Assembly: GCA_014239555.1 (NCBI GenBank)
Contig: JAAZYR010000001.1
Span: 1-64,000, forward strand
Length of the DNA stretch: 64,000 nucleotides
From: Acidimicrobiales bacterium
Lineage (GTDB): Bacteria; Actinomycetota; Acidimicrobiia; Acidimicrobiales; Poriferisodalaceae
Reading direction: 5' to 3'
Below, piece by piece: positions 39,179-41,651 of this stretch. The position numbers and the translations under genes were made by a program. Numbering within the stretch: the first letter of the stretch is position 1; the number at the start of each line of letters is the position of its first letter. Under the pieces are notes generated by a model. It searched no databases. It was not told the origin of the DNA and saw nothing but the letters and a program-made list of their open reading frames with translations.

Positions 39179-39868
39179 GTGGACTCTTTGGTTTCGCTCG
39201 CTGCTGAGATAGCAAACTGCCGTCAATGTGATCGTTTAGTCGAGTGGCGTGAACAAGTCGCCTTAGAGAAGCGGGCGGCGTTTCGTGACGAAGACTATTG
39301 GGGGATGGGTGTACCCGGGTTTGGAGACCCAGCAGCGAAAGTAATGATCATTGGCCTAGCGCCCGCAGCCCATGGTGCCAATCGAACCGGGCGTGTCTTT
39401 ACTGGTGATCGTTCGGGAGACTTTCTTTTCGCTTCTCTACACAGGACAGGGTTCGCCAATCAATCTTTTGCCAGGCATGTTGGAGACGGACTTCAACTGG
39501 CGGACGCCTATGTCACGGCCGCTGTACGGTGCGCCCCCCCGGGGAACAAGCCGACGACTGAAGAGCGTGACAACTGCCGGCCCTATATCGAACGTGAGTT
39601 GGATCTGCTTCGCAAGGTCCGCGTATTTGTAGCGCTGGGGCAGTTTGGTTACCAAGTCGCCTGTTCAATCCTGGGAGTGCGGCCTCGTCCCAAGTTTGGC
39701 CACGGAGTCGTGGTGCCATTGTCAGAGCACGGCTGTGAGCGCACCGGGAATATCGTTTGCTCGTTTCATCCAAGTCAACAGAACACGTTCACGGGACGGC
39801 TTACCGAACCGATGCTCGATCAAGTTTTCTTGACGGCGCGCGAACTTGCCGAACTAGAGCCCGCCTAA
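39179..39868 (+). CDS. type 5 uracil-DNA glycosylase (UdgB-like, Fe-S)
   Basis: A 229-residue uracil-DNA glycosylase of family 5. The Fe-S cysteines are in NCRQCDRL at the N-terminus and in VRCAPPGNKPTTEERDNC. The uracil pocket motif is GLAPAAHGANRTGRVFTGDRSGDFL; GLAPA with Ala rather than Asp/Asn is characteristic of family 5. The C-terminal VCSFHPSQQNTFTGRLT holds the catalytic/binding His. It removes uracil and related deaminated bases from DNA. It diverges from the phosphatase gene across 61 bases. Confidence 0.93.
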   Translation: MDSLVSLAAEIANCRQCDRLVEWREQVALEKRAAFRDEDYWGMGVPGFGDPAAKVMIIGLAPAAHGANRTGRVFTGDRSGDFLFASLHRTGFANQSFARHVGDGLQLADAYVTAAVRCAPPGNKPTTEERDNCRPYIERELDLLRKVRVFVALGQFGYQVACSILGVRPRPKFGHGVVVPLSEHGCERTGNIVCSFHPSQQNTFTGRLTEPMLDQVFLTARELAELEPA

Positions 39869-39877
39869 TCTTCGACC

Positions 39878-40456
39878 ATGGCTCCTTGCATAAATATCAG
39901 AGGCCTTCTTCGCCGAGTTGTTGTCTTTGGTCTCGTGCTCACCAGCGCTTGTTCGATACAAGACACCTCAGTCAGTTATCAAGATGAGACAGCTACTTCA
40001 TTCGATAACCCCGGCACTCTGGTCGTGGCTGATGAACCTCCTGTCGGCGGCTATTTACTCGACATTGGTACCACGGTCGCCTTTTTGGATTCATGCATCG
40101 CGAATTCAGGTTTGGTTGGACCATGTCATTGTGCATCCGATCTATTGGTTTACGACGTCGATATCGCCGACGTCATAGGGCTTGAAGATCGGATGAGTGC
40201 ATTCAACAAATTTCCGCCTGAATTAGCAGGTTTGTTAGTCCAATGTCGTGGCGCTGCTCGACCCGCTGAGTGGTCGCCTTCGACAAAAGAGCTTTATCTG
40301 TCGGCCTGCAGCCACGGCTCAGATCGTTTGGACCGACTGTGTCGTTGCTCCGCATCTCGGGCCGCTGATGTCATCCCTGAGGAGCGATTGTCAGAATTTT
40401 TGAGTGCAACCGACCTGCGCCCCAACATGGTGGATCTCATCAACACATGTCTTTGA
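39878..40456 (+). CDS. lipoprotein with two Cys-rich repeats
   Basis: A 192-residue protein of unknown family. The signal peptide (LRRVVVFGLVLTSACS) ends in a lipobox with Cys at about 25. The mature part contains two similar units of about 55 residues: FLDSCIANSGLVGPCHCASDL...LLVQC and LYLSACSHGSDRLDRLCRCSASR...LINTC. Each has the spacing C-x(9 to 11)-C-x-C followed 35-40 residues later by C. Eight cysteines in the mature repeats could form disulfides in the exported protein or bind metal. It starts 9 bases after the glycosylase gene. Confidence 0.75.
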   Translation: MAPCINIRGLLRRVVVFGLVLTSACSIQDTSVSYQDETATSFDNPGTLVVADEPPVGGYLLDIGTTVAFLDSCIANSGLVGPCHCASDLLVYDVDIADVIGLEDRMSAFNKFPPELAGLLVQCRGAARPAEWSPSTKELYLSACSHGSDRLDRLCRCSASRAADVIPEERLSEFLSATDLRPNMVDLINTCL

Positions 40457-40481: not shown

Positions 40482-41651
40482 CTATTTACGGGTTGGAGTC
40501 GGCAACATGGCGGGTTTGTCCCAGGCGAACTCAGGCCATCTTGCTCGAGACTTTTGACTTAGTTTGTGCATCAGTTCGATCGCCGCCGGGTCGTCATCTC
40601 CGGGTCTGCCGATCAAATAACCGTCCTCAAGCATTTTCATAATGATTTCTCGGCCTATTGGAGTTCGCACGATTGTCAGTGTCCAATCGCTGTACATACC
40701 AATGCCTCCAGTCGAGATATCAGCATGCTCTGCGGCAAAATCCGGGCAGTAATTACAACCTTCTCGTGTCCAAGCGTGGCATTCCTTGAGGTTGATTTCG
40801 TAGTAGCCGCCATCGTGCGTCCAGATTTGGAAAACACCTTTGATGTTTGTTTTCTTGATCGTGTGACGATCTAGCCCATATTTCTGCTCGAACAATTCTT
40901 CAAAGATTGCCTCATCAAAGGACTTCGAACACAGCAGCCCGATGTTGAGAGCAAACCTGTTACCGACTTTTCCGATTTTTCGGGACTTAGCAACCGGCAG
41001 AATTGAGCTTTGGCAACTCATCCCAACCAGCGCGATTTTCTTTGCCCCGGCTTCAATCGCTTCGCTATATGCAAGGGTGTTCGCAGAATAGGTGTACCGA
41101 CTGCCGGCACCTCTAATGACATCATCTCGATTAAAGGCGACCCCGGGAGAGGCGGTCCATTGAGAGCCTTCGCCTTCGCCCACATATGAGGTGAGAGCGG
41201 CATCTATGTACCCGTTGTCTAGGGCCCAGATGAGGATCGCGGACACAAGCCCGCCGTCTTGCCCGACCTCGTGGATGAAGTCATCGGATGCTCGAGTGAG
41301 GATGATGTCCTTGTACACCCCTGACGGTTCCTCGGGTGTGCGAGTCCGATCAAACAAAAACTCGTCGGCTTCGTCTTCCCACGTTCGAAAGCGCGGACAG
41401 GCCCTCGTGCAACTCGTGCAGCCTTTTTCCCCATGCCCGCAGTTGTCCGGCCCTAACTCATCCTCGATATGGAACGGCTTAAATCCACCTTGGACGTGGT
41501 CGTACCCAATTACGTCGTGGGGACAACTGATCACGCAGCCCGCGCAACCGGTGCACAGACCCGATGTGATGACTTCTTCGTGAAGTTCTTTCCATTGGAA
41601 TGACCAACGCTCTTTTTTGGGTGCTTCGGTGTCGTTTTCTGTCACGGCCAT
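40482..41651 (-). CDS. coenzyme F420 hydrogenase/dehydrogenase beta subunit (FrhB) family protein
   Basis: A 389-residue iron-sulfur flavoprotein. Two ferredoxin-like clusters lie in the first 100 residues: LCTGCAGCVISCPHDVI and NCGHGEKGCTSCTRACPRF. The FrhB N-domain follows (QDGGLVSAILIWALDNGYID) and the FrhB C-domain includes KIALVGMSCQ, NIGLLCSKSFDE, ECHAWTREGCNYCPDFAAEHADISTGGIG. The family oxidises or reduces F420 or related deazaflavin or tetrapyrrole substrates. Divergent to a putative F420-dependent enzyme, which supports an F420 role. Confidence 0.88.
   Translation of the reverse strand: MAVTENDTEAPKKERWSFQWKELHEEVITSGLCTGCAGCVISCPHDVIGYDHVQGGFKPFHIEDELGPDNCGHGEKGCTSCTRACPRFRTWEDEADEFLFDRTRTPEEPSGVYKDIILTRASDDFIHEVGQDGGLVSAILIWALDNGYIDAALTSYVGEGEGSQWTASPGVAFNRDDVIRGAGSRYTYSANTLAYSEAIEAGAKKIALVGMSCQSSILPVAKSRKIGKVGNRFALNIGLLCSKSFDEAIFEELFEQKYGLDRHTIKKTNIKGVFQIWTHDGGYYEINLKECHAWTREGCNYCPDFAAEHADISTGGIGMYSDWTLTIVRTPIGREIIMKMLEDGYLIGRPGDDDPAAIELMHKLSQKSRARWPEFAWDKPAMLPTPTRK

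What the first reader, a model, noticed from the sequence alone, without database searches (positions are those of the whole stretch)
39878..40456. Exported protein made of two Cys-rich repeats
After a lipoprotein signal, two units of about 55 residues share a C-x(9 to 11)-C-x-C ... C pattern and similar helical ends. This internal duplication is not explained by a family I know. It could be a disulfide-stabilised surface module or metal trap.
Basis: partly seen in the sequence, partly recalled or inferred. Interest (0 to 1): 0.5.

Follow-up and report, generated by a model that had tools for sequence, protein, structure and literature searches.

The report
Two-unit cysteine-rich lipoprotein, unnamed module
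A marine-type bacterium makes a membrane-tethered protein of two copies of a small, probably disulfide-stapled helical module; the module matches no family in the libraries searched but occurs singly in many related bacteria, also joined to a signalling kinase and to zinc peptidases, so it looks like an overlooked outside-the-cell module.

Summary
The ORF at 39878-40456 (192 aa) has a signal peptide with lipobox (Cys25), then two units: U1 (res 65-125, C-x9-C-x-C-x37-C) and U2 (res 135-192, C-x10-C-x-C-x33-C). All eight unit cysteines are present in 29 of 29 two-unit sequences. Profile comparison shows a real duplication (above all 200 Cys-preserving permutations), although the two single sequences alone would not. 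Both units are under purifying selection.

Beyond the finding: of 110 loci of the neighbouring uracil-DNA glycosylase (UDG) gene examined in the order, 38 carry the module downstream of UDG on its strand, 35 as single-unit genes, 3 as the two-unit form. The module also ends a transmembrane Ser/Thr kinase, precedes PF04228-type zinc peptidases, and follows zinc-ribbon plus transmembrane segments. No Pfam, NCBIfam or PHROG model and no PDB sequence matched at E 0.001.

Best reading: a disulfide-stapled helical module outside the membrane, working as a binding or sensing ectodomain, here doubled. Location and duplication are well supported; the ligand is unknown. A metal trap is not supported. 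Three two-Cys relatives suggest pairing C1-C2 and C3-C4; one member without C4 does not fit that simply.

The parts
39878..39949 (+). Signal peptide, residues 1-24, ending in lipobox LTSA
   Evidence: hydrophobic segment and lipobox Cys aligned in 28 of 28 two-unit sequences that reach it; read by eye, no signal-peptide program was on hand
39950..39952 (+). Cys25, predicted lipidated N-terminus of the mature protein
   Evidence: Cys column kept in 28 of 28 sequences that have this region; lipidation itself inferred
39953..40057 (+). Poorly conserved tether, residues 26-60, predicted mostly disordered
   Evidence: block means of pLDDT 33 to 51; few conserved columns apart from NPGT, which most sequences have
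40070..40252 (+). Unit 1 (residues 65-125), four predicted helices (63-77, 80-92, 96-109, 114-122); Cys73, 83, 85, 123
   Evidence: single-unit profile matches it, hhalign E 1.8e-10
40253..40279 (+). Inter-unit linker (residues 126-134)
   Evidence: dN/dS 0.73 against 0.06 in the units, window vs L041 (only 9 codons)
40280..40453 (+). Unit 2 (residues 135-192), four predicted helices (134-145, 149-165, 168-176, 178-191); Cys144, 155, 157, 191
   Evidence: single-unit profile matches it, hhalign E 1.2e-7
39179..39868 (+). Uracil-DNA glycosylase superfamily gene just upstream, same strand, 9 bases between the genes; anchor of the conserved slot
   Evidence: PF03167 E 1.6e-28; precedes the two-unit gene in 26 of 27 loci, the 27th starting at a contig end
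40482..41651 (-). FrhB/FdhB-like F420-linked Fe-S protein, other side of the slot
   Evidence: PF04432 E 3e-30, PF04422 E 2.2e-16; follows in 27 of 27 two-unit loci

Best explanation
The gene makes a lipoprotein anchored on the outer face of the cytoplasmic membrane by Cys25. A flexible tether carries two tandem copies of one small four-helix module. In each copy two disulfides (inferred C1-C2 and C3-C4: 73-83 and 85-123; 144-155 and 157-191) would staple helix 1 to helix 2 and helix 2 to helix 4. The module is an extracytoplasmic binding or sensing unit: in Acidimicrobiia it occurs singly on a lipid or membrane anchor, at the outside end of a transmembrane Ser/Thr kinase, next to a zinc peptidase, and behind zinc-ribbon plus transmembrane segments. 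In the window family it is doubled in one chain, by duplication of the unit or by fusion of two adjacent single-unit genes, which probably gives a two-site binder. Shown by computation: lipobox, duplication, homology to single units, architectures, purifying selection. Inferred: disulfide pairing, surface position, binding role. Unknown: the ligand.
For: Duplication: control. Homology of both units to single-unit proteins: (scores 47.6 and 35.4 against Cys-kept permutation maxima of 19.2 and 20.5, 150 each), and with a model that excludes the window family. Conserved Cys and lipobox. Selection: dN/dS 0.063 (U1), 0.057 (U2), 0.73 (linker), UDG 0.069, all window vs L041; U1 and U2 stay between 0.046 and 0.137 against L042 and L043 as well. 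Helical units. Extracytoplasmic architectures: kinase-TM-module L212 (Pkinase E 3e-48; module spacing C-x9-C-x-C-x37-C, the same as U1), module plus PF04228 L196 (E 4.8e-26; HExxH read also in L202, L215, L230, L232), zinc ribbon-TM-module L194, L233. Pairing: two-Cys relatives L197, L235, L236 keep C3 and C4 and lack C1 and C2. DsbB-type oxidase with CRWC and a second Cys pair in the genome.
Against: No ligand, partner or phenotype is known; 'binding or sensing' rests on domain company alone. No kinase or peptidase with the module was detected in the window's own genome, so an in-genome partner of that kind is not seen; a single-unit paralogue with shifted Cys spacing exists (L178). L084, a slot member, has C1 and C-x-C but no C4, which C3-C4 pairing does not explain. 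No VKOR was found and no convincing secreted DsbA. The U1-U2 likeness is insignificant at single-sequence level with Cys held. The full AF2 model is moderate (pLDDT 70, pTM 0.58, the five models ranging from 39 to 70; U1 weaker than U2), and I had no coordinates with which to measure Cys-Cys distances. The two-Cys relatives match weakly (14-16 bits), and for L235 and L236 the profile aligns only from the residue before C3 onward.
Confidence: 0.53

Rival explanations
1. Metal-binding module: the four Cys of each unit (with His84 in the C-H-C of U1) bind one metal such as Zn or Cu, and the lipoprotein scavenges or delivers metal.
For: CxC is a common metal motif (general knowledge); C-H-C in U1 of 28 of 29 two-unit sequences; eight Cys in one exported protein.
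Against: In U2 and in single-unit proteins the middle residue varies, no non-Cys column is invariant across the module, the C1 to CxC spacing ranges from 8 to 22 residues, and two-Cys relatives lack C1 and C2 as a pair.
Confidence: 0.13
2. Redox-active thiol module: C-x-C works as a thiol-disulfide exchanger or redox sensor outside the membrane, signalling through the kinase in fused forms.
For: CxC pairs can be redox-active (general knowledge); kinase fusion; F420-linked and Fe-S redox genes beside it in the window; L084 keeps C1 and CxC while lacking C4.
Against: All four Cys are conserved together in nearly all members rather than one catalytic pair; the predicted units are all-helical, not thioredoxin-like; C2 is missing in the two-Cys relatives; the gene neighbourhood also holds DNA repair, phosphomutase and aminoacyl-tRNA synthetase genes.
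Confidence: 0.14
3. Plain structural envelope lipoprotein: the stapled helical units are rigid spacers that bind cell wall or other envelope proteins without sensing anything.
For: Small lipoproteins of this kind are often structural (general knowledge); acidic, compact mature protein of 18 kDa, pI 4.2.
Against: The module is joined to a kinase and to peptidases; the units are tightly conserved while the tether is not.
Confidence: 0.2

Closest known systems
Single-unit CxC lipoproteins of Acidimicrobiales in the UDG-FrhB slot (unnamed; e.g. L074, L090, L093, L131)
   Same: Same slot downstream of UDG, lipobox, one module with the same four Cys, profile match to both U1 and U2
   Different: One unit instead of two; longer and more variable loop between C1 and CxC
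Ectodomain of a transmembrane Ser/Thr kinase, L212 (Pkinase PF00069)
   Same: C-terminal end, outside if the hydrophobic segment spans the membrane, is one module with the spacing of U1, C-x9-C-x-C-x37-C
   Different: Kinase and TM instead of lipid anchor; single unit
Zn_peptidase PF04228 proteins with an N-terminal module (L196, L202, L215, L230, L232)
   Same: Lipobox followed by one module
   Different: Carry a downstream HExxH peptidase region; the window protein has none
Twin CX9C (CHCH) proteins (recalled, not searched by sequence)
   Same: Small helical units with Cys spaced by nine, two disulfides expected
   Different: CHCH has two CX9C pairs in a hairpin; here C-x9/10-C-x-C and a distant fourth Cys

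Membership tests
Bacterial lipoprotein | N-terminal signal peptide with lipobox and Cys at +1 | tested here: met
   LTSA-C25; aligned Cys in 28 of 28 sequences that reach it; by eye
Bacterial lipoprotein | Lipidation and membrane location | not testable with these tools
   needs biochemistry
CxC module family defined here (single-unit lipoproteins of Acidimicrobiales) | Profile-level similarity beyond the Cys pattern | tested here: met
   E 1.8e-10 (U1), 1.2e-7 (U2), above all 150 Cys-kept permutations each; E 3.8e-6 with the window family left out of the model
CxC module family defined here (single-unit lipoproteins of Acidimicrobiales) | Four Cys in order C, C-x-C, C | tested here: met
   both units, 29 of 29 two-unit sequences; exceptions among single-unit relatives: L084 lacks C4, L178 has C-x4-C, L197, L235, L236 have two Cys
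Twin CX9C (CHCH) family | Two C-x9-C pairs on two antiparallel helices | tested here: not met
   U1 C-x9-C-x-C-x37-C, U2 C-x10-C-x-C-x33-C; no second C-x9-C pair in a unit; definition recalled
Any Pfam-A or NCBIfam family | Window protein scores above a curated cut-off | tested here: not met
   window protein: pATOM36 11.2 bits against cut-off 27 in Pfam, no family in NCBIfam. Relatives: best E 0.1 for 12 members of A1 (Pfam), 0.029 for 18 members of A2 (Pfam), 0.002 for A2 (NCBIfam)
Known fold in the PDB | Significant structural match | tested here: inconclusive
   no Foldseek match at E 0.001 for the whole model or for U2 alone; VIA Z at most 4.2 and 3.2; U1 was not folded alone
Metal-binding four-Cys site | Conserved ligand set bound to metal | not testable with these tools
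   indirect evidence against

The most novel reading that the evidence does not exclude
The unit is an unnamed bacterial extracytoplasmic sensing domain, a two-disulfide four-helix module, that Acidimicrobiia put on kinases, zinc peptidases, zinc-ribbon membrane proteins and lipoproteins, and that at least one genus of another class has on a membrane anchor; the window protein is its tandem, membrane-tethered, receptor-like form without an enzyme attached.
Probability: 0.4. Interest if true: 0.62.

Novelty: new variant of a known kind. Interest (0 to 1): 0.47.

Why it matters
It gives a profile-level definition to a module that the curated libraries searched here do not hold, with several architectures. 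The kinase and peptidase joins make a testable prediction: that this is an input module for signalling or proteolysis in a group of actinobacteria that is, in my judgement, little studied. The slot beside UDG, found empty, with one gene, with two genes, or with one two-unit gene, is a small natural record of domain duplication.

Tried and rejected
Known-family explanations: Pfam, NCBIfam, PHROGs and PDB sequence searches gave no match at E 0.001 for the window protein or for members of A1 and A2 (best values 0.2, none, 0.5, 0.1, 0.018, 0.029, 0.002, none). I put the lipoprotein-type models (LptM, cytochrome c551 and others) down to signal peptides, without checking each position. PADLOC was not searched. 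Fold searches gave only low-Z helical matches, serum albumin subdomains among them for both units (Z about 2.3 to 3.3); not used.

Chance pattern: rejected by permutations. Spurious ORF: rejected by conservation and dN/dS. Single-sequence U1-U2 alignment: not significant with Cys held, told as a result against.

Breadth: the one scan of genome contigs with A1 (144 pattern matches, 27 relatives) returned records whose titles name Acidimicrobiia or groups in it, one of them only Actinomycetota and one only 'marine actinobacterium'. Plasmid search with one single-unit protein: no match. Whether the module exists outside the phylum was not tested further. Phylum search with A4: 13 of 346 genomes, 2 of them outside the class, both of one genus. 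Earlier phylum search with A2: 17 of 346; A2 includes signal peptides, and I did not count its weak hits L198, L199, L200, L201 and L203 as members, although L198 and L203 beat all 200 shuffles (8.1 and 11.7 bits); L199-L201 were not tested so. The two-Cys query: 3 of 198 genomes, its own source included. L180 was rejected: 1 of 200 shuffles scored at least as high.

Literature: searches found no paper with all their terms; one search listed one (PMC3601408) and one (PMC4916215). I saw the listings only and read no paper. No claim of absence from print is made beyond these searches.

Full report
What is there. Window 39878-40456 (+) encodes 192 residues. Residues 1-24 form a signal peptide ending in LTSA and Cys25 follows (lipobox, read by eye). 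After a poorly conserved tether come U1 (65-125) and U2 (135-192). Cys are at 73, 83, 85, 123 and 144, 155, 157, 191, besides 4 and 25. The start codon lies 9 bases after the stop of a UDG-superfamily gene on the same strand; an FrhB/FdhB-like gene is convergent on the other side.

The two-unit form elsewhere. A search of 61 genomes (the window's own and 60 relatives) found it in 29, all of the same family: 29 of the 37 genomes of that family and 0 of the 24 from other families of the order. In the alignment of these 29 sequences, window included, all eight unit Cys are present in 29 of 29, and the lipobox Cys in 28 of 28 that reach it; L017 is cut by its contig end. Named relatives found in genome contigs are MAGs titled Acidimicrobiia, Acidimicrobiales, Acidimicrobiaceae, Candidatus Microthrix, Microthrixaceae, marine actinobacterium MedAcidi-G3 or Actinomycetota (27 loci). 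In those 27 loci (L041-L067) the FrhB-like gene follows in 27 and the UDG gene precedes in 26; L055 begins at the contig start. The order in most of them is SCO1664 family, DUF3090, phosphomutase, UDG, this gene, FrhB-like, F420-dependent oxidase, ArgS.

Is the duplication real? U1 against U2 profiles: probability 92%, E 7.8e-7, score 33.8. Permuting all U2 columns gave at most 18.4, and permuting only non-Cys columns at most 24.2, 200 trials each. The two window sequences alone do not reach significance when Cys are held (5.1% of 2000 shuffles score as high). The copies have therefore diverged far.

Selection. Window vs L041 (95% identical over residues 62-192): dN/dS 0.063 in U1, 0.057 in U2, 0.73 in the 9-codon linker, 0.069 in the UDG gene. 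Against L042: 0.046 (U1) and 0.097 (U2). Against L043 (86% identical): 0.137 (U1), 0.075 (U2) and 4.9 in the linker, where dS is tiny. UDG was compared with L041 only. Of four more distant sequences, several comparisons were saturated at synonymous sites, and L044 was skipped for an ambiguous base (all).

Single-unit homologues. An order-wide search with the two-unit profile (298 genomes) gave ten matches in the same family (own genome included) and two weak hits in another family, L039 and L040. Both lie between a UDG and an FrhB-like gene and have one unit behind a hydrophobic segment, as read from their ORFs. I therefore used UDG as an anchor: 142 of 148 genomes had a match, 126 places being strong (E below 1e-48, my count of the table). 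I examined 110 of the 126: 30 returned loci with flanks on both sides where the contig allowed, and 80 fetched stretches that hold only the downstream side. The 16 left out were lower-ranked, second or partial matches, near contig ends, or G122, already seen as L039. A profile built from 40 single-unit domains finds the module in 38 of 110, on UDG's strand and downstream of it; the best opposite-strand hit has E 8.6. Because the fetched stretches hold no upstream side, 'downstream' is a test only for the 30 returned loci, 15 of which have a hit. Of the 38, 27 had gone into the profile, so 11 are independent, including the three two-unit loci L068, L070 and L080. The other 35 loci carry proteins with exactly one C-x-C unit each; three of them (L146, L156, L161) hold two adjacent single-unit genes. 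One of the 35, L084, has no fourth Cys. In L069 (same family), L076 and L078, the matched ends of UDG and FrhB-like genes lie about 70 to 135 bases apart with no module found between them.

Both window units match the single-unit profile: U1 E 1.8e-10 (47.6 against a Cys-kept permutation maximum of 19.2), U2 E 1.2e-7 (35.4 against 20.5), 150 permutations each. Sequence-to-profile scores of the units alone are lower (14.4 and 17.5 bits; 0 of 200 shuffles reach them, but the best U1 shuffle comes to 13.6).

Other architectures. Searches with the domain profile A4, which includes window-family units, found matches in 24 of 198 genomes of the class and 13 of 346 of the phylum. The matches include a Ser/Thr kinase (Pkinase E 3e-48) with a hydrophobic segment and a C-terminal module (L212; the search alignment counts one TGA, and the reading frame ends just after the fourth Cys); PF04228-type proteins with the module between lipobox and peptidase region (L196 tested, E 4.8e-26; L202, L215, L230, L232 read from sequence, with HExxH); zinc-ribbon-TM-module proteins (L194, L233; the zinc-ribbon scores lie just below Pfam's cut-offs); and membrane-anchored single units, two of them (L237, L238) in one genus outside the class. 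Names of the G genomes are not given by the tools. In the window's own genome only the two window units reached E 0.001 with A4; with A2 a paralogue, L178, did too (E 9.7e-6).

Cysteine pairing. L197, L235 and L236 match the domain profile weakly (16.2, 14.8 and 14.1 bits, 0 of 500 Cys-kept shuffles each) and keep C3 and C4 while lacking C1 and C2. For L235 and L236 the profile aligns only from the residue before C3 on, so the loss of C1 and C2 there is read from the absence of other Cys in the domain. Cysteines lost together suggest C1-C2 and C3-C4. Two of the three are of one genus (G564 and G475). Against it stands L084, which lacks only C4.

Structure. AF2 on 28 sequences: mean pLDDT 70.4, pTM 0.58, four helices in each unit. 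U2 alone: pLDDT 87.2, pTM 0.70, four helices. PDB searches gave no significant match, which does not show a new fold.

Oxidative folding in the genome. DsbB family: one match above cut-off, E 2.2e-12, with CRWC and a second Cys pair. VKOR: none. Thioredoxin_4: one match below cut-off whose ORF has no Cys and no evident signal peptide, so not a convincing exported DsbA.

Conclusion. It is the two-unit form of an unnamed, probably disulfide-stapled helical module of exported proteins. The role I think most likely, binding or sensing outside the membrane, rests on the company the module keeps and is not shown.

Noticed in passing
L178 1495-1827 (-), G000:C44: Single-unit lipoprotein paralogue in the window's own genome with C-x4-C in place of C-x-C; 0 of 200 Cys-kept shuffles reach its domain score.
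   Followed up: partly
L146, L156, L161, downstream of UDG: Two adjacent single-unit lipoprotein genes in the slot, an alternative route to a pair of modules.
   Followed up: partly
L084, downstream of UDG: Slot member with C1 and C-x-C but no fourth Cys; does not fit simple C3-C4 pairing.
   Followed up: no
L212 (G038:C1): Transmembrane Ser/Thr kinase whose C-terminal end is one module with the spacing of U1.
   Followed up: partly
L196, L202, L215, L230, L232: Lipoproteins with the module followed by a zinc-peptidase region of PF04228 type; in L196 Pfam gives two matched stretches, so the peptidase part looks duplicated as well.
   Followed up: partly
window 40482-41651; L074, L090, L039, L040: The FrhB-like gene is convergent with UDG in the window family and in L076, L078, L082-L084, L086, L087, L089, L092, L094, but on UDG's strand in L074, L090, L039 and L040, so the slot's far neighbour has flipped.
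   Followed up: no
L233 (G606:C93): Zinc ribbon-TM-module protein with a further C-terminal region of well over 100 residues that matched no Pfam model.
   Followed up: no
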